Origin: Liolophura sinensis
Taxonomy: Eukaryota > Mollusca > Polyplacophora > Chitonida > Chitonidae
NCBI RefSeq assembly: GCF_032854445.1
Contig: NC_088303.1
Location: 1,247,501-1,311,500, forward strand
DNA: 64,000 nt
Direction: 5' to 3'
This document shows positions 10,501 through 51,715 of this stretch, in pieces. Each line of letters begins with the position of its first letter. Positions within the stretch are counted from its first letter, which is position 1. Under the pieces are notes generated by a model that searched no databases, was not told the origin of the DNA, and saw only the letters and a list, made by a program, of their open reading frames with translations. The position numbers and the translations under genes were made by a program.

Positions 10501-13500
10501 CCACAGACAAAAAATAAAACTACTGAAAAAAACCCTAAAACTATTTTCACTTCAGCAATGTTTATACATGTAGATATTATTGACTTCATGTTCCCATATT
10601 CCAAAAGATATGGCTCAGAGAGTTATGCCCCCTTGTTTTGATATTAGTATCCTAAATTCCTCACCCTCAGAATGGACATATCAATCCAGAGTTAAAAATG
10701 CATCCAGAACTACTCTCAAAATCCTGCTGAATCTACAGGTATCATAACAGACAATCGTTACCTGCTGAATCTAGGGGTATCATAACAGACAACTGTCACC
10801 TGCTGAATCTTTGGGTATCATAACAGACAACTTTCACCTGCTGAATCTACAGGTATCATAACAGACAATCGTTACCTGCTGAATCTACAGGTACCACAAG
10901 AGACAATCATTACTTGCTAAATCTATGAGTATCATAACAGACAACTGTCACCTGCTGAATCTATGGGTATCATAACAGACAACTGTCACCTGCTGAATCT
11001 AGGGGTATCATAACAGACAACTTTCACCTGCTAAATCTACAGGTATCATCACAGACAATCGTTACCTGCTGAATCTAGGGGTATCATAACAGACAACTGT
11101 CACCTGATGAATTTAGGGGTATCATAACAGACAACTGTCACTTGCTGAATCTACAGGTATCATAACAGACAACTGTCTGCTGAATCTATGGGTATCATAA
11201 CAGACAATAGTTATCTGCTGAATCTATGGGTATCATAACAGACAACTGTCACCTGCTGAATCTAGGGGTATCATAACAGACAACTTTCACCTGCTAAATC
11301 TACAGGTATCATAACAGACAATCGTTACCTGCTGAATCTATGGGTATCATAACAGACAATAGTTATCTGCTGAATCTATGGGTATCATAACAGACAATAG
11401 TTATCTGCTGAATCTATGGGTATCATAACAGACAATAGTTATCTGCTGAATCTATGGGTATCATAACAGACAACTGTCACCTTCTGAATCTACAGGTATC
11501 ATAACAGACAACTGTCAACCAAATGTCAACCATCATGTAAACCTCTGTGGCAGGTAAATAACTGCAAGGCCATTTTCCAAATTACAAATTATCAATTATC
11601 TAGAAAGTATACAAAAAGTCAATCCTCTTTGACACTGTTCACTGGCAGTAACAATGAGACAGTGTGACATGTGTAGTAAGGTGTGATGTACAAAGGGGTA
11701 CTGTAACAGAAGATAGATCAGGAATGATGGGAGATAAGACGGGGGTGTTATATATCACTCCTGGTACTGCAAGGTCATCTTTTGGACAACAAACTTAACA
11801 TCTACTGTACTCTGCCTAACACACAGTAAATATCCTATTAATCAGACCCTTGGGAATGCACAAGATCAAGCAGAGGCTGCTATCTGACCTTTACTTCAGT
11901 GTCTCAGGATCGGGCCCAGCAATATGCGCTGTTTTGTCATAAACTTTATCTATATCTATTCAAACAAACTGGTTGGAAAGATATGAGCTTCTTTTTTAGG
12001 TTATATTTGTTACAAATCCTAATTACATCTTTCATTGTATTCAAATAAAATGACACCTGTTGCCTGGAATAAATCAAAACTCTGTAAAGAACATGTATGT
12101 ATTTATTTTCTTGTTGTTTATGTTATACTCATGAATATTTGACTTGACCACTCCTGAAGCCAAATTTAAGAGTGCTAGTGACACATTCATGTCTGACAGA
12201 ATCTAGGGTCAGGGGAGCAAGAGTCAGGGGAGCAAGAGTCAGGGAGCAAGAGTCAGGAAGCAAGAGTCAGGGAGCATGTCTTCAGGTGTGCAAATCACAT
12301 TCCTAGTCCTCTATAAATGCTGTGATAATCACACCTCTGCTCAAAAACAAAAACAAAGGCCTGGTCATATGATTTCGTTTATACAGAGTTACTGACAGAA
12401 AGGAACTCTTACCATGGACTTGGTAAATGGTCGAGCCAGATAAAAGAGAAGACGGTAGAGCCACCAGTTCCGGGAAAGAGATGAGTACATCATGTTGCCA
12501 GGGTGAAGGGAATTTGACGTGACTCCCTGCTCCATGTAACGAGCATTCAGCTCCTGGGAGAACAGAACGTTACAGAGTTTGGACAGATTATAGGCTCGCA
12601 TCGCCTGGTATTTGCTGGCAGGGGGAGATAACTTCTCCTCAGACAACTGTTTAACAGAAGCTTCATCTGTAAATCTGAAAAGAGACAGGAGAGTTACTGT
12701 AGTTCAGTTTCAGCAGACTATAACACATCTGTTGCCAAGGTTGTTTTATGTCTCCAATATTCTAACAAACATGCAATGTGTTTATGTATTTATTATTACA
12801 TACGTGTATGATGGCCAGCAGGTTTATGGGTGGGGTGAGCCAGAGTGCCCGGCATAAACCACCGACTTTTGCCAGTTACCACACAAACCTTTTGACTTCA
12901 TAAATAAGGTGTGGCTGACACAATAAGATCTGGATTTGAGCATGCTACCTCATTGGTCAAGGGTCTGATAGTCACAGTGAGCCTTAACCTTCTGAGCCAG
13001 CGAGGTCCCATGCATAAAACAATCTTTTACAAAAGAGCAGAAATCTACTGAATGTCATAATCAAAAAGTCAAAAATCAAATTTTGACATACACGTGTGTG
13101 CATAGATCAAACAGCACGCAGGAGATAAACACAAGTGCATCCTTATATCCAAATCCTATGTACATGTACAAATGCAAATGGTATGTTCATTTTAAAATTA
13201 ATACAAATATTAAGGGTTTTCAATATTAACATATACCTGTGTGACTCTGAGGACACAAGAATGACCCTACTAGGGGCAGAGGTAACCAAGGTTGGTGTGA
13301 GCAGCTTTGTTAGGTAGACTTGGGCCAAGTGGTTAACCTGGAATGTTGTTTCTAGTCCATCAACTGTCAATGTGTGAGGAAGGCCAAACACACCAGCATT
13401 CAAGATCAATATATGTAGAGGCCTGGTATAAACAAAAAAAATTCTGAAACAGAGGCCTGGTGCAGACAAATAAAATACTGAAATAGGGGAGTGGTATAGG

Positions 13501-16500
13501 TAAACAAAATACTGACACAGGGGTCTGGTATAGGTAAACAAAATACTGAAATAGGGGTCTGGTATAGATAAACAAAATACTGAAATAGGGGTCTGGTATA
13601 GGTAAACAAAATACTGAAATAAGGGTCTGGTATAGGTAAACAAAATACTGAAACGGGTTTGGTATAGGTAAACAAAATACTGAAATAGGGGTCTGGTATA
13701 GGTAAACAAAATAATGAAATTGGATTCTGGTATAGGTAAACAAAATACTGAAATTGGGGTCTGGTGTAGGTAAACAAAATACTGAAATTGGAGTCTAGTA
13801 TAGACAAACAAAATACTGAAATAGGGGTCTGGTATAGGTAAACAAAATACTGAAATTGGTGTCTGGTACAGGTAAACAAAATACTGAAATAGAGGTGTGG
13901 TATATACAAACAAAATACTGAAATAGGGGTCTGGTAAAGGTAAACAAAATACTGAAATAGAGGTCTGGTATAGGTAAACAAAATACTGAAATTGGGGTCT
14001 GGTATAGGTAAACAAAGTACTCAAATTGGGGTCTTGTGTAGGTAAACAAAATAATGAAATTGGGGTCTGGTATAGGTAAAAATACTGAAATTGGGGTCTG
14101 GTGTAGGTACACAAAATACTGAAATTGGGGTCTTGTATAGGTAAACAAAATACTGAAATTGGGTCCTGGTATAGGTAAACAAAATACTGAAATAGGGGTC
14201 TGGTATAGGTAAACAAAATACTAAAATAGAGGCCTGTTATAGACAAAAAAAATTATGAAATAGAGGCCTGGTATAGACAAACAAAATACTGCAATAGGGT
14301 TCTGGTAATGGTAAACAAAATACTGAAATAGGGGTTTGGTATAGGTAAACAAAATACTGAAATAGGGGTGTGGTATAGGTAAACAAAATACTGAAATAGG
14401 GGTCTGGTGGAGACAATACACTAAGTCAGTTAACTGGTAATAAGGTACGTCCTGCTGAGCTCAGTATACATGAATATTTAGCGATCTCTGTAAAAACATC
14501 TTTCCTGGGGTTTATATAGCGTGTTATTTATAATTTTAAAGCCGAAAACAGGTTTTTCAGCCCAAATATTTTTGAATAATTCCAACACAAAATAAAACTG
14601 TAATAGCTTTAGCAATTTTACTATTTTTAGGGACAAAATGTTACAAAATGTCTGCCATGATACTGTCACAGGAACAAGATGTTTAGACAAAAATAAAAGG
14701 TTAAAGAAGTCCACAGGTATCCACTAACTCACCACTGCCTGGCATTGTACTTGTCTGTGAAGTGTCTCACGCTGGCTAGGGATGCTAAGTCCACTTCCAT
14801 CACTTCCATCTCAGCAGTCGGATACTCCGCTAAAATCTTACTTCTTGCCATATCCGCAGACTGAGTGTTCCGACATGCCAGTGTCACATGGCAGCCATGA
14901 GAAGCCAAGGATCGGGTTGTTTCATATCCTGCAGTGTGAAATTCAGAAGAGATAAAAGCCAAAATGTCTCATGAAAGGGCTGATCTCAACTATTAATAAC
15001 ATTAACATTAAGTAACATTAATAATTAGCCCTGCAAATCAAAACACACTGTGAACTGGAGAACCTGACTTGTCATGAAGTACAACCAAAAGTACACTGTG
15101 AAATGTAGAGCCTGGCTTGTTATCAAGTACAATCAAATAAACACTATGATCTGTACAGTCTGAACTGTGGAGCCTGACATGTCGCAAAGTGCTTTAAAAC
15201 AACACTGTGAACTGTGGAGCCTGACATGTCGCAAAGTGCTTTAAAACAACACTGTGAACTGTAGAGCCTGACATGTCGCAAAGTGCTTTAGAACAACACT
15301 GTGAACTATAGAGCCTGACATGTCGCAATGTGCTTTAAAACAACACTGTGAACTGTAGAGCCTGACATGTCGCAAAGTGCTTTAAAACAACACTGTGAAC
15401 TATAGAGCCTGACACGTTCTAAAGTGCAATCAAAACAACACTGTGAGCTGTGGAGCCTGACATGTCGCAAAGTGCAATCAAAATAACACTGTGAACAGTA
15501 GAGCCTGACATATCGTAAAGTGCATCAAAACAACACTGTGAACAGTAGAGCCTGACATGTCGTAAAGTGCATCAAAACAACGTGAACTGTAGAGCCTGTC
15601 ATGTCGTAAAGTGTAATCAAAACAACACTGTGAAAGGCGGAGCCTGACATATTGTAAAGTGCAATCAAAACAACAATGTGAACTGTAGAGCCTGACATTT
15701 CACAGAGTGCAATCTAAACAACACTGTGAACTGTGGAGCCTGACATGTCGCAAAGTGCAATCTAAACAACACTGTGAACAGCGGAGCCTGACATGTCGTA
15801 AAATGCATCAAAACAATACTGTGAACTGTAGAGCCTGACACGTCGCAAAGTGCTTTAAAACAACACTGTGAACTGTGGAGCCTGACATGTCGCAAAGTGC
15901 TTTAAAACAACACTGTGAACTGTAGAGCCTGACATGTCGCAAAGTGCTTTAAAACAACACTGTGAACTGTAGAGCCTGACACGTTCTAAAGTGCAATCAA
16001 AACAACACTGTGAAAGGCGGAGCCTGACATGTCGCAAAGTGCTTTAAAACAACACTGTGAACTGTAGAGCCTGACATGTCGCAAAGTGCTTTAAAACAAC
16101 ACTGTGAACTGTAGAGCCTGACACGTTCTAAAGTGCAATCAAAACAACACTGTGAGCTGTGGAGCCTGACATGTCGCAAAGTGCAATCAAAATAACACTG
16201 TGAACAGTAGAGCCTGACATGTCGCAAAGTGCAATCAAAATAACACTGTGAACAGTAGAGCCTGACATGTCGTAAAGTGCATCAAAACAACGTGAACTGT
16301 AGAGCCTGTCATGTCGTAAAGTGCAATCTAAACAACACTGTGAAAGGCGGAGCCTGACATATCGTGAAGTGCAATCAAAACAACAATGTGAACTGTAGAG
16401 CCTGACATTTCACAGAGTGCAATCTAAACAACACTGTGAACTGTGGAGCCTGACATGTCGCAAAGTGCAATCTAAACAACACTGTGAACCGTGGAGCCTG

Positions 16501-19500
16501 TCATGTCATAAAGTGCAATCTAAACAACAATGTGAACTGTAGAGCCTCATATGTCACACAGTACAATCAAAACAACAATGTGAACTGTGGAGCCAGACAT
16601 GTCGTAAAGTGCAATCAAAATAACACTGTGAACTGTGGAGCCTGACATGTTGTAAAGTGCAATTAAAACAACACTGTGAACTGTGGAGCCTGACATGTCG
16701 CAAAGTGCAATCAAAACAACACTGTGAACTGTGGAGCCTGACATGTCGCAAAGTGCAATCAAAACAACACTGTGAACTGTACAGCCTGACATGTCGCAAA
16801 GTGCAATCAAAACAACACTGTGAACTGTAGAGCCTGACATGTCGTAAAATGCATCAAAACAATACTGTGAACTGTGGAGCCTGACATATCGTAAAGTGCA
16901 TCAAAACAACACTGTGAACTGTAGAGCCTGATATGTCGCAAAGTGCAATCAAAACAACACTGTGAACTGCAGAGCCTGACATATTGCAAAGTGCAATCAA
17001 AACAACACTGTGAACAGCGGAGCCTGACATGTCGTGAAGTGCAATCAAAACAACACTGTGAACTGTGGAGCCTGACATGTCGTAAAGTGCAATCTAAACA
17101 ACAATGTGAACTGTAGAGCCTCATATGTCACACAGTACAATCAAAACAACACTGTGAACTGTGGAGCCTGACATGTCGTCAAGTGCAATCAAAATAACAC
17201 TGTCAACTGTGGAGCCTGACATGTCGTAAAGTGCATCAAAACAACACTGTGAACTGTATAGCCTGACATGTCGTAAAGTGCATGAAAACAACAATGTGAA
17301 CTGTAGAGCCTGACATATCGTAAAGTGCATCAAAACAACACAGTGAACTGTGGAGCCTGACATGTCGTGAAGTGCAATCAAAACAACACTGTGAACTGTG
17401 GAGCCTGACATGTCGTGAAGTGCAATCAAAACAACACTGTGAACTGTGGAGCCTGACATGTTGTAAAGTGCATCAAAACAACACTGTGAACCGTGGAGCC
17501 TGACATGTCATAAAGTGCAATCTAAACAACAATGTGAACTGTAGAGCCTCATATGTCACACAGTACAATCAAAACAACACTGTGAACTGTGGAGCCAGAC
17601 ATGTCGTAAAGTGCAATCAAAATAACACTGTGAACTGTGGAGCCTGACATGTCATCAAATGCAATCAAAACAACACTGTGAACTGTAGAGCCTGACATAT
17701 CGTAAAGTGCAATCTAAACAACACAGTGAACTGTAGAGCCTGACATGTCGCAAAGTGCAATCTAAACAACACTGTGAACTGTAGAGCCTGACATGTCGCA
17801 AAGTGCAATCAAAACAACAATGTGAACTGTAGAGCCTGACATGTTGTAAAGTGCATCAAAACAACACTGTGAACTGTGGAGCCTGACATGTTGTAAAGTG
17901 CAATTAAAACAACACTGTGAACTGTGGAGCCTGACATGTCGCAAAGTGCAATCAAAACAACACTGTGAACTGTGGAGCCTGACATGTCGTAAAGTGCATG
18001 AAAACAACACTGTGAACTGTACAGCCTGACATGTTGCAAACTGCAATCAAAACAACACTGTGAACTGTAGAGCCTGACATGTCGCAAAGTGCAATCTAAA
18101 CAACAAGGTGAACTGTGGAGCCCGACATGTCGCAAAGTGCAATCTATACAACAATGTGAACTGTACAGCCTGACATGTCATAAAGAGCAATCTAAACAAC
18201 ACAGTGAACTGCAGAGTCTGTCATGTCGTGAAGTGCAATCAAAACAACACTGTCAACTGTAGAGCCTGACATGTCGCAAAGTGCAATCTAAACAACAAGG
18301 TGAACTGTGGAGCCTGACATGTCGCAAAGTGCAATCAAAACAACACTGTGAACTGTAGAGCCTGACATGTCGCAAAGTGCAATCAAAACAACACTGTGAA
18401 CTGTAAAGCCTGACATGTCACAAAGTGCAATCAAAACAACACTGTGAACTGTGGAGCCTGACATGTTGCAAAGTGCAATAAAAACAACATGATGTTAACA
18501 AGCAACTGAAACTGAGAGATCAAGTTACTGCGTGGCCTTTCCACACCTAACTTTGCCATACCATAAACTGTGCATGCTGTACACCACAGAACAATCATAC
18601 CTGCACATCTAACAAAAAGCAATCATGGCAAAGTTCATCTGATTACTGTTTAACCCTACACTGGTACTTAAAGTGAACTTAAAGTCAACTACTAAAGCTG
18701 AAGTAATTAATAAAATACTTTTCCAGAAATGTTCTAAAAATTATAAAAATTCTCCACTACTTATGAACAAAATAACTAGTAAACAATCCTCAGTAGCCAC
18801 TGGCATTTGGCAATGTTATAACTTATAGCAATCTAGTGACGTCAGAAAACCTAGGAGCACTCTCGTACCAACTGCAATAAACAATGTGACAATGAGAACA
18901 TACAAGCAAAAACACCTGATATCCAACTGGAGTATCAACTCTGTTCCGTGTTCAGGGCCGATATTACTTTCAGTTTGGCGCTCGGGCAGGGCGATGTTCG
19001 TGTACACAAGTGTCATGTATTACCAGACCTGCTCATCATCACTCTACATGGGTGTAAGCATTTCGACTAGCTGGCTATACCAACTGCAGGGAATTTACCG
19101 AACATAGCTGGACCTAATGACTGATAACAGACTCTTTCATTCAGATTTTGTGAGGATATTTATCTGTTATAATTGTGTATCATTTTTTCTAAGGATATAT
19201 AGCAGCAGACTTTCAGAATATTTGGGTAATTTTGCACACAACCAACACTTGGTATGGGTGATGAAAACCAGGCTACCCAGAATAACCCACTGGCCTTTGG
19301 CACCATGAGCTGTGATGAAGTCCTAATGGCCCTGCATGTACATGTACACATCACTTAATTTGAAAGCTGTCTCTTCAAAGCAAGAACAATGAACACAAGC
19401 AAAAAAAATTGTTTCTGTATGATGCTTCAAAACTCACCAGACTGGGTTTAATACACTCCAAAATTTGTCTACAATTTAGGAAAGCAACTCAAGATTAAAC

Positions 19501-25500: not shown

Positions 25501-28500
25501 TTTATCTCCATAATTACAGTGCCACCTCACTGCACCATCATTGTCACAGCACAAGCACCTGTTATGTCACACCCAACTTTGGTGAAACAAAATCCATTGC
25601 AAATGACCCCAAACTTTGCCTCAATAAGTGTGTTTTTAGATGCAAATAAATGTCATGAAGTATAATTTAATAATTTTTCCAGTAGGATATCGCCTTACCT
25701 TGTACACAAAGCCAAAAACACCTTTCTAGGGTCAATAAAACGCAGGCAAAATTTGCCACCAATAAGTAGGCATGTGGAAAACTTAAGGCTGTGTTAAAGT
25801 TCACCATAAATCAGCTAATTTTTGTCACTCACTCATTTTCTTTTGGGATTTGCATACATTGTACTGTACATGTATAAATGTGACTAGCCACATTTCACGT
25901 GATTCAGTTAACATCAAACCATGGCTGTCTCCTTGTACCAGACTGGTCTCCATGACAACAAGCTTATCCCAATCCACTCAAAGCCCACACCAAAGCCAGC
26001 AATGGTATCCAAATATAATGTCTCACCCATCAGGTAATCTACTGAGTTACTTCCCTTCATTCACCATACACACGTGTTACTGTTGTAAGTTTCTGCAGCA
26101 AAAGCAGTAACATGAGCCTCAACTAAATTCCACTGTGTTTGTGCATATAGTATGACTTCAGCGAGCTGCTTTCCATCAAAACAACTCATTTTCTGAATTC
26201 ATGCTTTCCACTTAACCTGTGAAAATTACACATATAAACCCAGTATAGGTATAAACTTGTTAAATAATACAAACTTCTTCCCTGAAGTAAAAAGTAAAAC
26301 TACTTACTCAACATAAAACACATGTCCATCATCTGTTACTTTTCTCTGCCAGCCATACGGTAACTCTGTGACAACAGCAGCAACAGAAAAAAGGATATGA
26401 TATTTCACCAAAACTTCACCTTTGTTAAGTGACATATTTCACCAAAACTTCAGCTTTGTTAAGTGACACATTTCACCAAAACTTTAGCTTTGTTAAGTGA
26501 CCTATTTCACCCAAACTTCAGCTTTGTTAAGTGACACATTTCACCAAAACTTTAGCTTTGTTAAGTGACATATTTCACCCAAACTTCAGCTTTGTTAAGT
26601 GACATATTTAGCTCGATTCTAAATGATCCATTCACCTCATTGGGCCATTTAAGGGGTTATCTAGAGTTTGATTAATTTCCTATCAGAAAAACTTAATTGT
26701 AGGCATCAAACCTGTCCTTTTAATCAAGGCCTTGGCACTGTATGTGCTTGTGAAGAGTGTGCATATTTACAGGCCAAATTTGTTAGACTCCATACTCATG
26801 AATTTTGGTAGAATGCACTATACATGTATTAAAGTAAATGAAAGCTAAAATATGAAGTAAGGTTCACTATAAAGACAACTGAAAACTATGTGTAAAAATA
26901 CTTCAATTTATTTCTTCAGCTTTTTTTAAGTGTGCTGTAAGGATTTCAAATATTTGAATGGTATGGTGAACTTTAGGAGCGATACTGACAATGCATCTAA
27001 GATTTATTTATTTATTTGATTGGTGTTTTACGCCGTACTCAAGCATATTTCACTTATACAACGGCAGCCAGCATTATGGTGGGTGGAATGCATCTAAGTG
27101 CTCTGACGTCACATCCCCTTGTTTTCCTCTTATAATTTTTTCTACTTTGATTTTTAGAGGTCTTTTCCTTAACACACTTTGGATTGTGAAGTATTGGCAT
27201 GAAAAATTTACCTTACAAGGTACAAGCTTACATGTACATACATATCTGTATGACACAATATAATAATATCTGTTTGTGGAGACTCTGTATGGAATGAAGT
27301 AGAAAAATCCTGTATTTCAGGGCATTATTTACAGCCCTAGATTGTAATTCTGGAAAACTGTTGGGCATCAAAGATTATCAAGCCGTATTAAAAGCAGCAA
27401 ACTGAACACAAATATTACAACAAATGTTTCTTTATTCGTGTTATGCACTATCACCATGTCACCTTTGGGATGGGAACCTTCCACACTATTCTAGACACAG
27501 CCCTGTGTTTTGTCCAGCTAACTGTTTCACAATGATATAAACAGCATGATATATCAGTACTTAACTTCCTGTTATTTTAATCAAATGACAGGTTAATGCC
27601 CTCAGTAAAGCTTACCTTCATAGATACAGTATGTGCAGCACTTGGCAAGGAATCATTAGAAGATGAAACCAGAACTTAATATTTAATTTACAATTCCAAA
27701 CAAATGATGCAGTGGTATGTTTGACCGAGCACTCCTGACCGAGCACCTGAGCTCTGTATGAATGAATGAACATCCAGCCATCTGCTATACTGCCTACCAC
27801 CGTCATACCAGTACGATAAACATTACCTGAGCTCTGTATGAATGAATGAACATCCAGCCATCTGCTATACTGCCTACCACCGTCATACCAGTACGATAAA
27901 CATTACCTGAGCTCTGTATGAATGAATGAACATCCAGCCATCTGCTATACTGCCTACCACCGTCATACCAGTACGATAAACATTACCTGAGCTCTGTATG
28001 AATGAATGAACATCCAGCCATCTGCTATACTGCCTACCACCGTCATACCAGTACGATAAACATTACCTGAGCTCTGTATGAATGAATGAACATCCAGCCA
28101 TCTGCTATACTGCCTACCACCGTCATACCAGTACGATAAACATTACCTGAGCTCTGTATGAGTATGTACCCTAGTTCTTCTTCCTTTCTGCATGCCAGTA
28201 ATTTATGTTTATCTAAGTTTATCAACATCTGGGCTTTACAAAAATAATTTAACTCTGAGCTTCAGTCCAGGCAGAAAATTGAAAATATTAAAATATGCTT
28301 AAAACAACTGTGAAAAGACTGAAGAAATACTGCATACTTTAACTTAATTGGCCCTTAGTGAGACTCTCCCAGGATTATAAACTTGTGATTGTTCCAATTT
28401 TCTTGTATTACTGCCAGTATTCTCACCTCCTTTGACAACCTTCTTCTTCCCAGTGGTAGGATGCACCCACTGTGTTGTCTGTTTAGCATGGCTGTAATAA

Positions 28501-34197: not shown

Positions 34198-34233
34198 TGA
34201 CGTCATTCTTTACACGAGAACATCGTTATAAAA
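34198..34233 (+). promoter_or_regulatory. CRE and TATA box of the CAP gene promoter
   Basis: A perfect palindromic CRE, TGACGTCA, lies at 34198-34205. A TATA box, TATAAAA, lies at 34227-34233, about 46 bases before the start codon. A start site near 34258 would leave a 5' UTR of about 20 bases. The layout suggests a focused, signal-responsive promoter, in contrast to WWOX. Confidence 0.6.
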
Positions 34234-34278
34234 ACATAGCGTCGAAGTGAATACGTCCAATGCTCTTCATTACACACA

Positions 34279-34539
34279 ATGATTGCGAAGATGGTACGTT
34301 TTAGCATTGTAGGAGTGATAATATCCACCTGTGTGCAGCTCGGCCTCTCAGTGAAGAAAGAAAGTAGGCCTATGCACTTTCAAGTTGCTGAAGATCGACA
34401 AAAACGCTTTTCTTTCCCGGGATGGAGCCAGGATACCAGCAAGACGGGTTTGACGGAAGAGGAGAAAATCGCCATTCTTCGTAGACACAATTACCACAGG
34501 AGTAGACCAACGCCTTCAGCCTCAAATATGATCTTTTTG
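34279..34539 (+). CDS. CAP gene exon 1
   Basis: Encodes the first 87 residues: signal peptide, a basic segment with DRQKR, and the start of the CAP domain ([19 protein letters not shown]). The first ATG is chosen; a second in-frame ATG four codons later is possible. The donor is GTGAGT after ATGATCTTTTTG, phase 0. Confidence 0.9.
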
Positions 34540-40500: not shown

Positions 40501-43500
40501 GCGGTTGTTTATATAATCACTTTATATCAGTGTGGTTGTTATCCCTGTAGCTCTCGCACAGGGCTGAGGGGTTATCATAGTTCGGCGCGTTACAGTAAAA
40601 TGTTATTTGAAAACTTGTATTCAGTGTCACTTTACGTCAGGTTTACCAGTTATAAACCCTAACTAGCACGGAAACCATGGCTCCTATGGAACTGAATATT
40701 GGTGACGGTAAACACCTTTATCCCGCATCAGACAAAATACTCCGCTTTTCATTGGACAGCATCGGTCACGTGAGGACGTGTATATTCACGTATCCTGCAC
40801 CTGACGCCATATGTGTTTGCCGACGAGGCTATCTGCCTTTGTTACGTTGTGAAAACATTGGCCACATCACTCATTTGAAGCGATGCACTTGTACATCGGT
40901 TTTTTGCGCTGAATTGATAAGTCTTTTGCATGATAAATTCGTAATATGGTTACTCATTGGCAGGGTACGGAACTATATGGTGTCAGAAAAGTCTCACCTG
41001 ACGCCTTGATTTAAATGAGGGTCACTGGAACCATATACTTCCGTACACTCCCACTGGCGAACCATGTAGCTAATAATATCTGGTCTTACTTTCAGCCGAA
41101 AATATAGCAGGCCCTAAGTTCCGAACAAGAAGCGGTTCACAAGAATGACTACTACCCCATTGTGCACTACAAGTGATTAGCCTACAAGTGCACGCAAGAG
41201 CCTACATGTACATGTATAGATTCACATTTATTTAGGTAAAGGCGAGCGTAGTGTTTCTTGTTGTAATTCCTGGAGTACCATACGGTCACTTTTCCAACCC
41301 CATGCCGCCTGCTATCTGCAAGATTCAAGTGTTGTACTTTTGTCAGATGCCAAAAACAATGTGTAGGGAGATGAAAGACTTACTCGTCCCGTGGCCGTCA
41401 AACAGTTAACACTTAAAAGGCTGTATATCTTGCACATTTGGTCACTACCTCTGTCGTAATGTTTTTGTTTTGTTTTCTGTTTGAAGATTTGGGATGATCA
41501 CCTAGCATCAGTGGCACAAGGATGGTCAACCAGATGTGACTTCGACCATAATTACAGTAATGATTACGGGGAGAATCTGTCTGCTCAAAGCAGTGAGTTG
41601 TAACTCGTGATATCATTTTTAGTTGAGATTGTATATGTGGCATACATGAACACTCAAGAATATCCCACCTAATGGATTTGTTAAGGAAATCCGAAAAAAA
41701 ATACATCTGTATATCTGTATAAGATAGTTTTGTAAACCCGACGTCAATTTTTCACACTAAATTTTCACAGGTTAATGCCCATTGAAAACTCCAACTACAT
41801 TTATTGATGAACCTTAGATACATGTGATGAACAATGTCGACGACTTTTTAAACTGCGTGTCGAGTTTTTAGTCCGTCGAGATTTAGGTACTAAGAAAAGA
41901 ATTTTTTCATGACATAGATACAAAACCATATTTTCCGTACATCCATTAAATCTTCACATGCATTAGACGAATTCTACCTATTTTGCAACAGAACCTATGC
42001 AGGATCATGAAGTCAGACATGGTCTCAAACTGCAAGGAACTTAATTATGACTTAACATGGTTTTTTTTTATTTCAGTACGCACTTTTGTATTAGACTTTC
42101 AAAACAAACTATAAAATAATAAATCAAAAAGTTCTAAGTTCAGAGATTTGTTTCACAAATTATGGCTAAGTCTGACCTAAGACGGTCTAAGAAAGCCTCG
42201 GGATTCTTGTGGAATTGATTTTGAACTTAAACTTGAAATTAAATGCTAATTTTTTGTTCGGTCATGAAAATCAAAATGAAAATTCCTAAGATAAGTCATA
42301 ATTTAGCGAGATTAATTAAGAGAGATAAGAGAAAATCTGACTTAAGTTTAAGTCAGCTTCTTGATCGTGAATCCTGGGCATCAAAATGTTATTCATAAAG
42401 GTCTGCATTAACCTGAGTTAATTAGACTGAAAAAGTACGTTTTAACGTATATCTTAACTTTATATCTAACTTTGTTTTAAGGTTATTACAACGTAACACT
42501 CGCAATCGACGCCTGGGTACAGGAAGGCGAAAGCTATGAATATGACACTAATCGGTGCACCACATCGACATGTGCACATTATCACCAGGTATGTCATATA
42601 TAATAAGCCCAGTATTATCAGGTATGTCACACGCACTATAGAATAAATGTTGCCCGTGCAGTATTATCAGGTGTACGGCATACGTAGACTATTGTATATA
42701 ATAAGCCCAGTATTATCAGGTATGTCAAAAGTACTATAGAATAAATGTTGCTCTTGCAGTATTATCAGGTATACGGCATACGTAGACTATTATATGTAAA
42801 ATGCTCAGTATTATCAGGTATATATAATCGCCTACTAGAGTAAAATGCTCAGTATTATCACGTGTATATAATCGCCTACTAGAGTAAAATGTACAGTATT
42901 ATCAGGTGTATGTAATCGCCTACTAGATTAAAATGCTCAGTATTATCACGTGTATATAATCGCCTACAAGAGTAAAATGCTCAGTATCATCAGGTATATG
43001 TAATGGCCTACAAGAGTAAAATGCTCAGTATTATCAGGTATATGTGATTGCCTACTAGAGTAAAATGCTCAGTATTATCAGGTATATGTAATCGCTTACT
43101 AGAGTAAAATGCTCAGTATTATCAGGTATATGTGATTGCCTACTAGAGTAAAATGCTCAGTATTATCAGGTATATATGATTGCCTACTTGGGTAAAATGC
43201 TCAGTATTATTTATTTATTTATTTGATTGGTGTTTTACGCCGTACTCAAGGATATTTCACTTATACAACAGCGGCCAGCATTATGGTGGGTGGAAACCGG
43301 GCACAGCTGTGCTTGAGCTCCAGTGTATGCAGAGCTGTAGGCTTCCGTGTATGCTGTGCCTAATCTTACGTGTATGCCGAGCTTTAGGTTTCCGTGTATG
43401 CCGAGCTTTGGGCTTCCGTGTATGCTTTGTTTAAACTCTCATGTATGCCGAGCTTTAGGCTCCCGTGTATGCCGAGCTTTACGTGTCCGTGTATGCTGTA

Positions 43501-46500: not shown

Positions 46501-49500
46501 TTCAGACTTTACTCGACGAGTCACGGAAAATTGGATGTGGCATGACATTTTGTCGTTCTATGACAACAGTTAGCATGTCAAATGGTTATTTCCTTGTCTG
46601 CAACTATTCCCCGGCGTAGGTATCGTATACCACATACTGTTACCTGTGCATCTGACATCTGTTTCGTTCTTCCCAGCAAAGCTATAACAAACACAGATGT
46701 GTCGACGTACTCTCATTAAGCTCTAACTCGGCCTTTCTCAGTAATGTATAGGCATGTGTGCATGCTGTTCTGTATTGACATTGGTTATACAAAAGCACAT
46801 TTGGGCGACTCCGTGGCTCAGTTGCTAAGCACGCTAGTGCAGAGTAATGACCCAGGTGCCTCTCACCAATGCGCTCGCTGTGAGTTCAAGTTCAGTCTCA
46901 TGCTGGCTTTCTCTCCAGCCGTACGTGGGAAGGTCTTGCACCAACTTGCGGATGGTCGTGGGTTTCCCCGGGCTCTGCCCGGTTTCCACCCACCATCATG
47001 CTGGCCGCCGTCGTATAAGTGAAATATTATTGAGTACGGCGTAAAACACTAATCAAATAAATAAATGAACAGAAAAACATTTCCTTTAATTCTGTAAATC
47101 ATGCGTCTATATCTGCAAGTCCTATTAATATCTGCACATAATAATGACTATAACATAATTTGATAAATGTAACCGGAACATGGACAACTGTTTGCTAACT
47201 GCCATGTCTGAATGCAGTCGGCATCGTTCGGAAAAGAATTTAACTCCTGGAACATGTAGATTAAAACCAATGAGAAGTACCTATACTATAATGAAAAGGG
47301 CAATATACACCGTGCTTGAACAGAAGAAACTAAAAATCACATTTAGTGAAAAATTTAAAACGTTGTCTTTGAAAGATCAACATATTCCAGTATGTCCCAT
47401 GCAGCCGATTGATTCGATCAAAATGAAAGATTTGTTTATTTATTTAGTTATTTATTTATTTCATTGGTGTTTTACGCCGTACCCAAGAATATTTCACTTA
47501 TACCACGGCGGCATGCATTATGATGGGAGAAAACCGGGCAGAGCCCGGTGGAAACCCACGACCATCTACAGGTTGCTGCCACACATTCCCAAGTACCAAG
47601 TTAAATTACGGTAGGCCTACATCATTAACGGACAACTTACGGTAGGTCTGTATCATCAACGGACAATTTAAGGCAGGCCTGTATCATCAACGGACAACTT
47701 ACCGAAGGTCCACATCATTAACGGACAATTAGAATAGGTCTATATCATTAGCGGAGAACTTACGGCAGGTATACATTATTATACGGACAACTTATGGTAG
47801 GTCTACATCATTAACGGACAATTTACGGCAGGTCTGTATTATTAACGGACAACTTACGGTAGGCCTACGTCATTAACGGACCACTTACGGTAGGCCTACA
47901 TCATTAACGGACAATATACGGTAGGCATACATCATTAACGGACAATTTACGGCAGGTCTGTATCATTAACGGACCACTTACGGTAGGCCTACATCATTAA
48001 CGGACAATATACGGCAGGCATGCATCATTAACGGACAATTTACGGCAGGTCTTTATCATCAACGGACAACTAACGGTAGGTCTACATCATTAACGGACCA
48101 CTTACCGTAGGCCTACATCATTAACGGACAATATACGGTAGCTTTACATCTTCAAAGGACAATTTACGGTAGGTCTTTGTCATAAGCGGACAACATACGG
48201 TAGGTCTACATCATTAACGAACAATTTACGGTAGCCCTTCAGGTCTACGTCAACAACGGATATACGGTAGGTCTGAATCATTAACGGACAATTTGCGGTA
48301 GGCCTACATCATGAACGGACAATTTAAGGTAGGTCTTTATCATAAACGGACAACTTCCGGTAGGCCTACATCATTAATGAACAATTTACGGTAGGCCTAC
48401 ATAATCAAAAGGCAACTTATGGTAGGTCCGTATCATTAATGGACAACTTACTGTATGCCTACAACATTAACGGACAAATTACGGTAGGCCTACATCATTT
48501 ACGGACAATGTACGATAGGTCTGTATCATTAACGAACAACTTATTATAGATCTACATCACCAACAGTCAACTTACGGTAGATCTACATAATTAACGGACA
48601 ATTTACGGTAGGTCTACATTATCAACGTACAATTTACGGCAGGTCTGTATCATTAACGGACAACTTATGGTAAGCCTACATCATTAACGGACCACTTACG
48701 GTAGGCCTACATCATTAACAGACAACTTACGGTAGGCCTACATCATTAACGCACAGCTTAGGTAGGCCTACATCATTAACGGACAACTTATGGGAGGTCT
48801 ACATTATTAATGGACAACTTAGGGTAGGTCTTCATCATTAACTGACAATTTACAGTAGGTCTGTATCATTAACGAACAACTTATGGTAGGCATACATTAA
48901 TAACGGACAATTTAAGGTATGGCTACATCATTAACGGACAACTTCCGGTAGGCATACATCATTAATGGACAACCCTAGGTAGGCCTACATCATTAATGGA
49001 CAATTTACGGTTGGCCTACATAATCAAAAGGCAACTTATGGTAGGCCCGTATCATGAATGGACAACTTATTGTATGCCTACAACATTAACGGGCAAATTA
49101 CGGTAAGCCTACATCATTAACGAACGTAGGCAATCATATGGTGTCAGAATTACTCCAGGACTGAAATAAGTCTTTTCTTTGCTTAAGAATAGCCATTTCT
49201 ATGATACAAAAATATACTCAAGGACTAAATACATCCCCTATTACCCGGTATTTTTATTTTGGTTTTCATTCAGTTTCAGTTCACTTTATTCACTCCGACC
49301 ACATCTATAGGATGGTACAACAACTTTAATATATGCACACATGTATCTCCAGGGATGGAGGCCTATTTTTTCAACACACTTTTTAAATATTTATCAAATA
49401 TTTGGTTTCGCTGATTAATTCTATATTAATGTGGTGATCGTTTTGAATCTTTGCAGCACGAATAAGGGTAGCTCTCGGCCCTATGTGAGTGGTACCCCGT

Positions 49501-51715
49501 GTTCCAATTGCCCCTCCGCTTACCCGACGTGTGAGAATAACCTTTGCCGTAAGTACAGTCCGAATGTTCTATCAGACAAAACACAGAAACCGGGCAATGT
49601 GCAACAGCAGATCAACAATTGTGTATAGGCCTTGTATCTCTTCTCCCTTAATGGACTTGAATGGGCATCTCGTAGTTCACAGTCAAACCTTGTGAATATA
49701 TATGATGGGAAAAATAGATTAGTTTAAAATTATTCCTTTAGAGCGGTGCGGTTGATAATCTGGTTAAGAAAACGCTAAGCTTTTTTTACTATAACAGCTA
49801 GCAGTGTCATTATAGGCAACGCAATGAGATTCTGTGGTTGGATAAATGCATATTCTTTTAGTACGTATTCGATTTATCTCTACATGGATTATATTATCTG
49901 GCATCATGTGTTACATTACCTGGGGTCCATTCGTATTCCTCACTCATGTTGAGAGCATAGTCATGAGTTGTGTAGACGTCACTTTTGTTCTTCACTGGCT
50001 ACTTATTCTACCACGATAAAGTTTGGCTGCATACAGTCTAGAATAAGTTGCCCGCTCTCCATGAAATCATCAGTTGAAATCTACATTTTAGGCATATATA
50101 TAACCTGAAACTCAATAAATGACGGAAAGGAAGACGTTGTGATAACCATCTACATTTTTCAGGTAGCCACCCATTTTGCAGAGGTATCGAATGTAATAAT
50201 GGAGGTCAGCTTATGAGTGATTTATGTCTGTGTGACTGTACAAACACGGGATACGACGACGCTACGTGTGGTAAGTATGGCGGACCAAGTGTAGTATAAA
50301 TATGGTGGACCACGTGTGGTAAGTATGGCGGACCACGTGTGGAAGGTATGGTTTCCTCCAACAACACACCTGGCCGTCCTCATGTAAGGATTTGCTTGGT
50401 TTCCTTTAACCATACATCTGGCCGTCCTCATGTAAGGATTTGCCTGGTTTCCTCTAGCCATACATCTGGCCGTCCTCATGTAAGGATTTGCCTGATTTCC
50501 TCTAACAAACATCTGGCCATCCTCATGTATGGACTTGCCTGGTTTCCTCTAGCCATACATCTGGCCGTCCTCATGTAAGGATTTGCCTGGTTTCCTCTAA
50601 CCATACACCTGGCCGCCCTCATGTAAGGATTTGCCTGGTTTCCTCTAACCATACGCCAGGCCATCCTCATGTAAGGATTTGCTGGGCTTTCTCTAACCAT
50701 ACATCTGGCTGTCCTCATGTAAGGATTTGCCTGATTTCCTCTAGTCATACATCTGGCCGTCCTCATGTATGGATATGCCTGGTTCCCTCTAACCATACAT
50801 CTGGCGTCCTCATGTATGGATTTGCCTGGTTTCCTCTAACCATACACCTGGCCGTCCTGATGTAAGGATTTGCCTGGTTTCTTTTAACCATACACCTGTC
50901 CATCGTCATGTATGGATTTGCCTGGTTTCCTCTAACCCATACACCTGGCCGTCCTGATGCAAGGATTTGCCTGGTTTCTTTTAACAATACACCTGTCCAT
51001 CCTCATATATGGATATGCCTGGTTTCCTCTAACCATACATCTGGCGTCCTCATGTATGGATTTGCCTGGTTTCCTCTAACCATACACCTGGCCGTCCTGA
51101 TGCAAGGATTTGCCTGGTTTCCTTTAACCATACACCTGTCCATCCTCATGAAAGGATTTGCCTGGTTTCCTCCTACCATACTCCTGGCCGTTCTCATGTA
51201 AGGATGTGCCTGGTTTTCTCTACCAAATACATTTGGCTGTCCTGTTGTAAGTGAAAAATGTTTTTCCAATCCATGCCGCCTTGACTCTTCCTCCACCTAC
51301 TTAAGAGCTTCGGGGGATTCAACTGCTGAGAGTAGTACAGCAGGTAAGTCTGATCCCGGGTGAAAAACCAGCCGGGATTGGCTGCCAATTTGTGAGTACA
51401 ATCCCAAACACAAAACATAATCTGCAGGACCTTGTGTAGAGCAGGACGCTCTATCAAAACCATATCTCACCATATTCATTGCATGTGGAGCTAGTTGCTT
51501 TGAACAGCTGTTTTCCAATCATTATCCATGACGTCTTGTAACCTCTTCCAGGAACTCCCCCAGTAAATCCGGATAATTCTGGATATCAAAACTCTACGGA
51601 AAACAATTCAAGAAACGATAGTTGGAAACTCAGTGGCAGTTTCGGCATATGGTCGGTTCTGTTTGCGATCATTGCGCATGCGGTTTGGGAAGGACTGATC
51701 ATAGAGAGGTCATAA
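34279..51715 (+). CDS. Secreted or membrane-anchored CAP-domain protein with an EGF-like module, 7 exons, 315 aa
   Basis: Exons: 34279-34539, 41487-41592, 42482-42588, 46506-46615, 49457-49548, 50163-50270 and 51552-51715. All introns are GT-AG and in phase, giving 948 nt with TAA. A signal peptide ([19 protein letters not shown]) and a basic stretch precede a CAP domain (about 57-210). That domain has [50 protein letters not shown] and [10 protein letters not shown], retaining the two His and acidic cavity residues. A Cys-rich hinge ([12 protein letters not shown]), an EGF-like repeat (CNNGG ... CLCDC ... DDATCG), a stalk with NST, NNS and NDS sequons, and a hydrophobic C-terminus ([16 protein letters not shown]) follow. 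The usual VVWA of the CAP1 signature reads TLLD here. The layout resembles GLIPR1 or PI16-like extracellular CAP proteins. Sterol binding or protease modulation are family possibilities, unproven here. Confidence 0.9.
34540..36162. other. CAP gene intron 1, first part
   Basis: Intron without a recognised gene. It contains a short SINE tail fragment at about 35655-35700 (TTATTTGATAGGTGTTTTAT) and a long T tract at 36095-36128. Several small open frames on both strands overlap and lack domains. Confidence 0.5.
36163..36940. mobile_element. Foldback or MITE-like element with perfect 27-bp terminal inverted repeats
   Basis: Bases 36163-36189 (starting GGCCGATTCCACAAAGCC) are the exact reverse complement of 36914-36940. 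The interior is about 724 bp and has no clear coding capacity. No obvious target-site duplication flanks it. A related end sequence (AGTCAGAAATGGCTTT) lies near 60500, which hints at a dispersed family. Confidence 0.75.
37060..37201 (-). repeat. Main-family SINE, head half
   Basis: The minus strand reads GGGGGCCTCCGTGGCTCACT, CGGTTAGCGCGCTAGCGCAG, a CGCTGTGAGTTCAAGTCC box B, and then CCGTAAGTGGGAAGG. The tail half is missing. The tRNA-like head here is one of the best preserved. Confidence 0.85.
38200..40010 (+). mobile_element. Decayed Ty3/gypsy retrotransposon pol region
   Basis: Successive conserved blocks appear in changing frames. They are the reverse transcriptase end ([20 protein letters not shown] at 38252), RNase H (PFILDT ... 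GAILSQ near 38410, then [11 protein letters not shown] near 38540), the end of RNase H (RKHSNAD near 38690), the integrase zinc-binding region ([10 protein letters not shown] near 39070) and the integrase core ([15 protein letters not shown] near 39230, EQGRQFES at 39365, [10 protein letters not shown] near 39456). A stop codon interrupts the core near 39312 and the second catalytic Asp position reads Glu. gag, protease and most of the reverse transcriptase are missing. It sits in the sense orientation in CAP intron 1 and cannot be active. Confidence 0.9.
40137..40594 (+). repeat. Candidate 3' LTR of the Ty3/gypsy element
   Basis: The segment begins TGTAATATCC and ends GCGCGTTACA, giving the TG...CA termini expected of an LTR. 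It holds an AATAAA signal (GTTAATAAAGCGG near 40493). No matching 5' LTR is visible in the window, so the boundaries rest on termini and position alone. Confidence 0.45.
40595..41486. other. CAP gene intron 1, last part
   Basis: Contains a short imperfect inverted repeat at about 40957-41063, where GGGTACGGAACTATATGGT faces ACCATATACTTCCGTACACT. Otherwise there is nothing recognisable. The 110-codon open frame at 40677-41009 shows no domain. Confidence 0.5.
41487..41592 (+). CDS. CAP gene exon 2
   Basis: Encodes [35 protein letters not shown]: the CAP helix and the GEN acidic residue. The acceptor follows a TTTTGTTTTCTG pyrimidine tract and ends GAAG. The donor is GTGAGT. Confidence 0.93.
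41593..42481. other. CAP gene intron 2
   Basis: AT-rich intron. Around 42160-42380 the words CTAAGTCTGACCTAAGACGG and CTGACTTAAGTTTAAGTCAG suggest a degenerate MITE of the kind with 'GATTC...TCTGACTTAAG' ends, but the boundaries cannot be fixed. Confidence 0.4.
42482..42588 (+). CDS. CAP gene exon 3
   Basis: Encodes [25 protein letters not shown], and CAHYHQ, which contributes the second cavity histidine. The donor CACCAG/GTATGTC is echoed in the tandem array that begins at once in the intron. Confidence 0.93.
42575..43204. repeat. Minisatellite in CAP intron 3 derived from the exon 3 donor, about 44-bp unit
   Basis: Units share CAGTATTATCAG/GTATATGTAA. The exon end and donor read GCACATTATCACCAG/GTATGTCATA, so the first unit overlaps the genuine splice junction. 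The first few units are longer (about 60 bp) and preserve GTATGTCA. Later units are about 44 bp with CGCCTACTAGAGTAAAATG. A SINE tail interrupts the array at 43205. Confidence 0.88.
43205..43311 (-). repeat. Main-family SINE fragment between two arrays
   Basis: Reverse-orientation tail: TTTATTTGATTGGTGTTTTA, CGCCGTACTCAAGGATATTT, CAGCATTATGGTGGGTGGAA. It joins the donor-derived array on its left to the 24-bp array on its right without spacer. Confidence 0.88.
43312..44304. repeat. Minisatellite in CAP intron 3, 24-bp unit (left part)
   Basis: The unit is CCCGTGTATGCCGAGCTTTA followed by GGCT, alternating with TATGCTGTGCTTAAGC forms. About 41 copies are present. The same array resumes at 45083-45250 after the inserted foldback element. 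Long open frames here are artefacts of the 24-bp period. Confidence 0.93.
44305..45045. mobile_element. Foldback element with long arms carrying CRE, E2F-like and CCAAT motifs
   Basis: The left arm from TGTGTCGTTGAGTCC (44315) is matched in reverse by the right arm ending GGACTCAACGACACA (45032). Similarity runs over about 230 bp of each arm. The left arm holds two perfect TGACGTCA sites (44347-44354 and 44366-44373). The right arm holds TTTTGGCGCGAAA twice (44811-44823 and 44845-44857), and ATTGG/CCAAT occurs in both arms. The middle (about 44545-44760) is AT-rich with short tandem repeats and no gene. The element splits the 24-bp array, so it inserted after the array formed. No clear target duplication is seen. 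Confidence 0.85.
45083..45250. repeat. 24-bp minisatellite, right part after the insertion
   Basis: CCTGTGTATGCCGAGCTGTA and GCTCCCGTGTATGC units continue the array found at 43312-44304. These copies are more diverged than those left of the insertion. Confidence 0.88.
45425..46015. repeat. Minisatellite in CAP intron 3, about 36-37-bp unit, about 16 copies
   Basis: The unit is ATGATGAGACTTGCACACAA followed by TGCCACATATAAACACC, alternating with a TCCCACATATGGACACCA form. It ends about 490 bases before exon 4. Confidence 0.92.
46506..46615 (+). CDS. CAP gene exon 4
   Basis: Encodes [16 protein letters not shown] and [12 protein letters not shown]. The acceptor is TTTAATATTTCAG and the donor GTAGGT. 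Phase 0 in and phase 2 out match both neighbours. The IGCG and CNYSP motifs identify it as the second half of the CAP domain. The tryptophan of the CAP1 signature is missing. Confidence 0.88.
46804..47065 (+). repeat. Full-length main-family SINE
   Basis: The best complete copy, about 260 bp. The tRNA-like head is CCGTGGCTCAGTTGCTAAGC (box A) with GTGAGTTCAAGTTC (box B). Then come CCGTACGTGGGAAGG, GGATGGTCGTGGGTTTCCCC, the CCACCATCATGCTGGCCGCC block and CGTCGTATAAGTGAAATATT. The tail is AATCAAATAAATAAAT. It serves as the reference for all fragments in this window. Confidence 0.93.
47432..47585 (-). repeat. Main-family SINE, tail-proximal half
   Basis: Reverse orientation: TTATTTATTTCATTGGTGTT, TTACGCCGTACCCAAGAATA, the CATGCATTATGATGGGAG block and GGTGGAAACCCACGACCATC. 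It leads straight into the 31-bp array with only about 20 bases between. Confidence 0.9.
47608..49130. repeat. Minisatellite in CAP intron 4, 31-bp unit, about 49 copies
   Basis: The unit is AACGGACAACTTACGGTAGG followed by CCTACATCATT. Copies are strongly diverged compared with other arrays, which suggests an older array. It starts at the broken end of a SINE. Confidence 0.94.
49457..49548 (+). CDS. CAP gene exon 5
   Basis: Encodes the hinge [31 protein letters not shown], typical of the cysteine pattern that follows CAP domains. The acceptor is TTTGCAG and the donor GTAAGT. Confidence 0.93.
50163..50270 (+). CDS. CAP gene exon 6 (EGF-like)
   Basis: Encodes [35 protein letters not shown], an EGF-like module often found after CAP domains in invertebrates. 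The acceptor is TTTTTCAG. The donor TGTG/GTAAGTATGG is repeated within the next 80 bases of the intron. Confidence 0.92.
50264..50345 (+). repeat. Tandem copies of the CAP exon 6 splice donor
   Basis: The exon 6 junction reads ACGTGTG/GTAAGTATGG, then CGGACC. The same 23-24 bases recur at once in a degenerate copy, then exactly as ACGTGTGGTAAGTATGGCGG, and then partly again (ACGTGTGGAAGGTATGG). The intron therefore begins with at least one perfect decoy of its own donor. Confidence 0.9.
50346..51240. repeat. Minisatellite in CAP intron 6, 48-bp unit, about 19 copies
   Basis: The unit is GGTTTCCTCTAACCATACAC, CTGGCCGTCCTCATGTAAGG, ATTTGCCT. It follows directly on the donor repeats. A multi-unit block starting near 50769 recurs near 51012. 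Open frames on both strands are due to the 48-bp period. Confidence 0.94.
51552..51715 (+). CDS. CAP gene exon 7 (terminal)
   Basis: Encodes a Pro/Asn-rich stalk with three N-glycosylation sequons, then [20 protein letters not shown] and a short IERS end before TAA. The hydrophobic tail could be a transmembrane helix or a GPI-attachment signal. The acceptor is CCTCTTCCAG. Confidence 0.85.

What the first reader, a model, noticed from the sequence alone, without database searches (positions are those of the whole stretch)
13237..50345. Hypothesis: splice junctions act as seeds for minisatellite birth in this genome
Three arrays in two unrelated genes start at a splice junction and copy it, including exon bases in at least two cases. 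Most known minisatellites have no such placement. Possible mechanisms include slippage or break repair at R-loops or pausing sites near exon boundaries, or selection keeping arrays that leave a working splice site at the edge. The result would be introns that lengthen from their ends and carry decoy sites.
Basis: inference. Interest (0 to 1): 0.85.

Follow-up and report, generated by a model that had tools for sequence, protein, structure and literature searches.

The report
Minisatellites that copy splice junctions
In a chiton genome, many short tandem repeats inside genes include the border between coding and non-coding sequence, an arrangement already known from amphioxus, and most of the pattern fits random duplication that splicing tolerates rather than splice sites starting the repeats.

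Summary
An array in WWOX runs through an acceptor and takes in 7 exon bases; an array in a CAP-family gene takes in 7 exon bases at a donor; a second CAP array copies a donor, with a weaker exon match. The genome is the chiton Liolophura japonica (assembly statistics match).

In 61 other gene stretches (287,690 bases, picked by exon hits without looking at repeats) 13 more arrays span or abut a splice junction, in 10 genes. Such structures are known in amphioxus as "mirages".

Seeding is not established. In introns with both ends known, 9 of 38 arrays span a junction. Placement inside the intron only predicts 0.88. A fairer null, a random founder window that may overlap the junction, predicts 5.76 (P 0.083; rate ratio 2.09, 0.83-4.85). 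Exon share of the unit looks random, other arrays are not drawn to junctions, and decoy GT/AG pairs are not purged. Donor-motif arrays outnumber reversed-motif arrays 39 to 19 in the parts counted, but the donor motif itself is 1.38 times commoner.

Best reading: neutral tandem duplication, tolerated because splicing keeps using the outermost junction. A moderate junction bias remains possible.

The parts
13416..14408 (-). 34-bp minisatellite, 29.4 copies, spans the acceptor of WWOX exon 6 and includes 7 exon bases; dinucleotide at the splice position intact in 25 of 30 copies
13237..13422 (-). WWOX exon 6 ([10 protein letters not shown]...), phase-2 acceptor CAG|GCCTCTA
   Evidence: adh_short Pfam hit
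14733..14928 (-). WWOX exon 5, donor CAGTG|gtgagt; gives W-P-L-H across the junction
42482..42588 (+). CAP-gene exon ending CACCAG|gtatgt
   Evidence: no Pfam hit for this exon alone, joined CAP exons hit PF00188 at 5.6e-15
42596..43210 (+). 49/98-bp then 44-bp array copying the donor TATCAG|GTATRT with probable exon bases
50163..50270 (+). CAP-gene exon (EGF-like cysteine pattern, read by eye) ending ACGTGTG|gtaagt
   Evidence: no significant Pfam hit for this exon alone
50264..50351 (+). 23-bp array, 3.7 copies, includes 7 exon bases and the donor
50349..51251 (+). 48-bp array that follows directly, inside the intron; unit not that of the junction
26400..26609 (-). 34-bp array ending about 34 bp upstream of the WWOX exon 3 acceptor; near but not spanning
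15161..18489 (-). 48-bp array, 69.9 copies, interior of WWOX intron 4; one of the 12 non-spanning arrays counted in the window

Best explanation
These are junction-spanning minisatellites of the kind called mirages in amphioxus. A short tandem duplication arises at a roughly random place in gene DNA. If its window overlaps an exon-intron border, one copy of the border is left intact on the exon side: the first for a donor, the last for an acceptor. The mRNA is therefore unchanged, the duplication is nearly neutral, and it can expand like any other intronic minisatellite, filling the intron with unused copies of the splice site and of the exon end. Shown: the anatomy; its recurrence in unrelated genes; exon share and position compatible with chance; decoy sites kept intact. 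Inferred: that splicing uses only the outermost site, and that founder duplications are random rather than drawn to junctions.
For: Blind sample: 13 junction arrays in 10 genes of three families. 9 of 38 arrays span against 5.76 expected under the founder null, P 0.083; the null is not rejected at 0.05 in 4 of the 5 rows. The exon fraction of the unit is compatible with uniform (KS P 0.42, n = 15). Of the 29 non-spanning arrays 28 were checked for a pull to junctions: 4 lie within 50 bp, 3.0 expected. Splice dinucleotides are intact in 164 of 174 copies against 158.2 expected from all columns, so no purge. The exon looks like the source, since copied exon ends are conserved protein (WWOX PLH). 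Donor-motif arrays 39 against reversed-motif 19 in the parts counted, single motifs 33,494 against 24,251: excess not significant after that correction (P 0.097).
Against: The rate ratio is 2.1-2.5 in all five rows. Batch 1 alone gives 8 of 20 against 4.30 (P 0.034, ratio 2.95, 1.05-7.88); blind set plus window gives 12 of 53 against 6.81 (P 0.020), although the window was the discovery set. Counting L055 as spanning gives 10 of 38, P 0.032. Before correction for motif abundance the donor-motif excess has P 0.006. A real two- to fivefold preference is therefore not excluded. No RNA was examined, so use of the outermost site is not shown.
Confidence: 0.68

Rival explanations
1. Splice junctions seed arrays: duplications start preferentially at exon borders, for example by break repair or slippage at R-loops or polymerase pauses.
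For: 9 of 38 spanning, ratio 2.09; batch 1 alone P 0.034. Donor-motif arrays 39 to 19 for the reversed motif, P 0.006 before correction for motif abundance. Donor-side arrays outnumber acceptor-side 12 to 4 with the second CAP array included (P 0.077).
Against: Batch 2 gives 1 of 18 against 1.46 expected, ratio 0.56 (0.03-3.99). Exon share of the unit shows no fixed offset. Arrays that do not span are not concentrated near junctions. The motif excess is not significant after motif abundance (P 0.097).
Confidence: 0.24
2. The arrays came first and donated the splice sites: the exon border moved into a pre-existing array.
For: Several units carry strong splice consensus.
Against: Copied exon ends look like conserved coding sequence: WWOX PLH; the L016 exon NYHYIKQGG, whose 26 listed PDB matches are all myosins, though each is weak (E 0.69-0.88); the L057 exon end SVHTPSA lies in a kinase match. 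In WWOX the phases of exons 5 and 6 fit.
Confidence: 0.04
3. Assembly artefact: arrays are mis-assembled or falsely expanded copies.
For: HiFi coverage was only about 14x. One scaffold (C99) carries seven mitochondrial cox1 copies.
Against: In most arrays the copies differ from one another (percent matches mostly 70-97), although one window array has 100%. Comparable amphioxus structures are backed there by RT-PCR of globin mRNAs and re-examined sequencing data (passages).
Confidence: 0.03

Closest known systems
Mirages of amphioxus (Adh3, globin BflGb6 and BflGb9, troponin C; similar repeats in PGBD5)
   Same: Tandem units span an exon-intron border, include exon bases, occur at donors and acceptors, and often keep AG/GT signals; unit sizes 10-72 bp in Adh3 and 150-160 bp in globins (passages of PMC3087553 and PMC3902484).
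   Different: Here in a mollusc, in WWOX, CAP, myosin, chaperonin and kinase genes, some with dozens of copies (42.9 in L013), and tested against a placement null. Splicing and length polymorphism not tested here.
Intron gain by tandem duplication of an AGGT-containing exon piece (Rogers model; potato RdRp case)
   Same: A tandem duplication carries a splice signal; PMC3087553 links mirages to this model (passage).
   Different: Here the duplicated border belongs to an existing intron, which lengthens; no new intron is claimed. The potato paper was seen only in a search listing with the start of its abstract; Rogers was not read.
Ordinary intronic minisatellites of molluscs, e.g. 27-bp unit in intron 3 of abalone TSSK1-like
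   Same: Tandem units of similar size inside introns (passages of PMC6905558).
   Different: No junction copy was mentioned in the passages seen.

Membership tests
Mirage minisatellites (amphioxus) | Tandem unit spans the exon-intron border and includes exon bases | tested here: met
   WWOX 7 bases, CAP 7 bases; 12 blind arrays with 9 to 113 exon bases, one more ending at the acceptor
Mirage minisatellites (amphioxus) | Both 5' and 3' splice borders can be affected | tested here: met
   11 donor and 4 acceptor arrays in the list; 12 and 4 with the second CAP array
Mirage minisatellites (amphioxus) | Many repeat copies retain AG/GT signals | tested here: met
   164 of 174 copies intact, 158.2 expected
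Mirage minisatellites (amphioxus) | Normal mRNA splicing despite the decoys | not testable with these tools
   no RNA data; only the outermost site leaves array DNA out of the mRNA (inference)
Mirage minisatellites (amphioxus) | Length polymorphism and somatic instability | not testable with these tools
   one assembly only
   9 of 38 against 5.76, P 0.083, ratio 2.09 (0.83-4.85); rows P 0.032 to 0.115
   exon share compatible with uniform, P 0.42, n 15; 4 of 28 interior arrays within 50 bp, 3.0 expected. Small samples
Intron gain by tandem duplication | A new intron between duplicated exon pieces | not tested
   would need orthologous genes of other chitons

The most novel reading that the evidence does not exclude
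Exon borders are two- to fivefold hotspots for tandem duplication in this chiton, more at donors than at acceptors, and spliceosomes tolerate long runs of intact decoy sites because they commit to the outermost site. Introns would then grow from their ends by copying their own splice sites, in molluscs as in amphioxus, as a general animal process.
Probability: 0.24. Interest if true: 0.7.

Novelty: new member of a known kind. Interest (0 to 1): 0.42.

Why it matters
Arrays of up to about 40 mostly intact copies of a real splice site beside the one used (L013: 42.9 copies; 41 of 43 intact) are natural experiments on how a cell picks one site among near-identical ones. They also show a way for introns to lengthen and a possible source of cryptic exons. 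Finding mirages repeatedly in a chiton, far from amphioxus, suggests that they are a general by-product of minisatellite-rich introns. The founder-window null matters for method: edge-to-junction enrichment alone does not show seeding.

Tried and rejected
I rejected it as evidence for seeding because it forbids overlap with exons. Motif test: three CAGGTAAGT at 10-40 base gaps, 241 windows against 161 for the reversed motif; AAGGTGAGT 106 against 35. Windows overlap within an array, so I counted distinct arrays by hand from the listings, grouping places within about 5 kb: CAGGTAAGT 14 against 6 on C1-C3 only (its listing shows 100 of 241 windows and stops at C3:23.27 Mb, so 14 is a lower bound); AAGGTGAGT 25 (100 of 106 windows listed) against 13 (all 35 listed). 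Not every such array is a mirage: strand against the gene was not checked, and one (C3:25738515) is antisense to the myosin matches that flank it. Selection against decoys: not seen.

Rows dropped before counts. Blind set: arrays with period under 15 or fewer than 2 copies, and also some short two- to three-copy ones (L033 779-818, L034 287-320, L041 1695 and 2406, L039, L055 366-404, L056 292-329, L012 1971-2009; L034 8058-8124 has 1.9 copies). Left out too are all arrays in stretches whose exons were not adjacent in the model (for example L005, L010, L019), among them four junction arrays (L004 5273-5641, L004 1-249, L009, L016) that count as examples but not in the 9 of 38. Window: a 14-bp array (12208-12276) and arrays outside the introns used. 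L015 was added after seeing the array; without it 8 of 36, P 0.093. L055 (edge 32 bp from the acceptor, similar motif) is counted as not spanning. Introns and arrays were listed by hand. Some splice sites were placed by eye: the L004 acceptor at 249|250 (automatic scoring preferred 207 or 229), L011 (third of three look-alike acceptors), L015, L016 and L055. In one search, 7 of 49 pairs had scores below zero; of these only L055 and L058 hold counted arrays, and the L058 intron was entered as 450 bases where one search suggests about 487. L0 ignores other insertions. The junction-distance check used 28 of 29 interior arrays (L058 left out). Coordinates of the first CAP donor were off by two and corrected. 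The L016 exon was not among the hits; its myosin identity rests, both weak.

Full report
What the window is. The window is C9:1247501-1311500 of a 609-Mb genome with 632 contigs. Contigs C1 (96,433,062) and C9 (37,343,639) equal the longest scaffold and the N50 published for the chiton Liolophura japonica, with 632 scaffolds and 609,495,693 bases (passages of PMC11068029; G000 itself counts 609,464,459 bases). WWOX lies on the minus strand, with eight exon blocks found by homology. A CAP-family gene lies on the plus strand (PF00188, E 5.6e-15 for joined exon translations).

The observation. TRF reports many minisatellites in the introns of both genes. In WWOX the 34-bp array 13416-14408 runs through the acceptor of exon 6 and ends 7 bases inside the exon. 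In the CAP gene the 23-bp array 50264-50351 starts 7 bases before the donor. The array from 42596 copies the donor at 42589; its match to the junction is unlikely by chance (P 0.0018), but its match to exon bases alone is marginal (P 0.047). In the window 3 of 15 counted intronic arrays span a junction, 1.05 expected, P 0.076.

Is it general? I fetched 28 stretches (194,127 bases) where exons of chaperonin PF00118 and myosin PF00063 cluster, then 33 stretches (93,563 bases) holding 49 pairs of neighbouring exons of PF00209 and kinases. The choice used exon hits only. Splice sites were placed by consensus score and reading frame, a few by eye (see Tried and rejected). Thirteen arrays span or abut a junction: at donors L002, L004 (two), L007, L009, L012 (two), L015, L016 and L057; at acceptors L004, L011 and L013 (list). 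They lie at ten separate places taken as ten genes. L016 is the most striking: an 82-bp unit with 54 exon bases ending GGDHK|gtgagt, 12.7 copies; that exon reads like myosin (26 of 26 listed PDB matches are myosins, each weak). In L013 a 32-bp unit with the acceptor occurs 42.9 times in one block, with a second block of the same unit upstream. One further array (L055) looks like an old case but ends 32 bp short and was counted as not spanning.

Seeding or chance? In introns with both ends known there are 38 counted arrays, 9 spanning. Shuffling arrays within introns predicts 0.88 within 5 bp of a junction (P 3.6e-8). But a duplicated window that overlaps the border leaves one intact border, so it should be tolerated. 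Letting a founder window of one unit fall uniformly on the intron (without its extra copies) and across its ends predicts 5.76 (P 0.083), and the fitted rate ratio is 2.09 (0.83-4.85). The first batch alone gives 8 of 20 against 4.30 (P 0.034, ratio 2.95); the second 1 of 18 against 1.46 (P 0.86, ratio 0.56). Variants: without L015 8 of 36, P 0.093; both exons by Pfam 5 of 24, P 0.115; three or more copies 8 of 31, P 0.062; L055 as spanning 10 of 38, P 0.032. With the window added, 12 of 53 against 6.81, P 0.020, but the window prompted the question.

Other signs. If junctions seeded arrays, the edge should sit at a preferred offset and other arrays should crowd near junctions. The exon share of the unit is compatible with uniform (15 arrays, P 0.42), and 4 of 28 interior arrays lie within 50 bp of a junction, 3.0 expected. 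Across the genome, arrays with three spaced donor motifs number 39 against 19 for reversed motifs in the parts counted (P 0.006). The single donor motif MAGGTRAGT is itself 1.38 times commoner than its reverse (33,494 to 24,251), and after this correction P is 0.097. The single-motif count covers four motif variants and includes tandem copies, so the correction may be too strong or too weak.

How it most likely works. A founder duplication falls across a border; the exon-side copy stays under selection, the others are free and spread by the usual minisatellite turnover. Splice dinucleotides are intact in 164 of 174 copies, 158.2 expected from all columns, so decoys are not purged. Donor-side cases outnumber acceptor-side ones 12 to 4 (P 0.077). 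This would fit tolerance: decoy donors lie downstream of the real one, whereas decoy acceptors lie upstream, where scanning from the branch point would meet them first (inference from general knowledge of splicing). Use of the outermost site is inferred from the reading frame, not shown.

What is known. Tandem duplications of exon-intron borders are described in amphioxus as mirages, in Adh3, globin and troponin C genes with similar repeats in PGBD5, at both border types, with retained AG/GT signals and apparently normal splicing (passages of PMC3087553 and PMC3902484). The original Adh3 paper is not held and was not read. My searches of an open-access library listed no paper that I could recognise as reporting them in molluscs; of the mollusc papers listed I looked only into the abalone one, and most subscription papers are missing there. 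So the class is known. A mollusc case, its frequency and the founder-window test appear to be new in that limited sense.

Noticed in passing
G000:C99 (108,685 bases) and C632: C99 carries seven cox1 copies about 15.5 kb apart: a run of mitochondrial genome copies, perhaps an assembly concatemer; C632 holds one copy.
   Followed up: no
window 46506-46616: The CAP exon runs into an in-frame TAG right at its likely donor (CCGGCGTAG|gtatcg), so the gene may end there, use another donor, or be damaged.
   Followed up: partly
window 27745-28161: An 80-bp array in WWOX intron 2 with 5.2 copies at 100% matches: probably a very recent expansion.
   Followed up: no
window 43212-43300, 46814-47060 and 47430-47600: Short interspersed elements: a dispersed GATTGGTGTTTTACGCCGTAC-type sequence ends the 44-bp array and recurs near 47430; 46814-47060 has a tRNA-like head by eye (ARAGORN found no tRNA).
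   Followed up: no
G000:C1:41107-2330747: A large share, about half by eye, of the first 100 MAGGTRAGT places listed sit in evenly spaced clusters (31, 81, 126, 236 bases), so tandem arrays may hold many donor-like motifs.
   Followed up: no
window 38200-40100: Retroelement-like reading frames broken by stops (read by eye).
   Followed up: no
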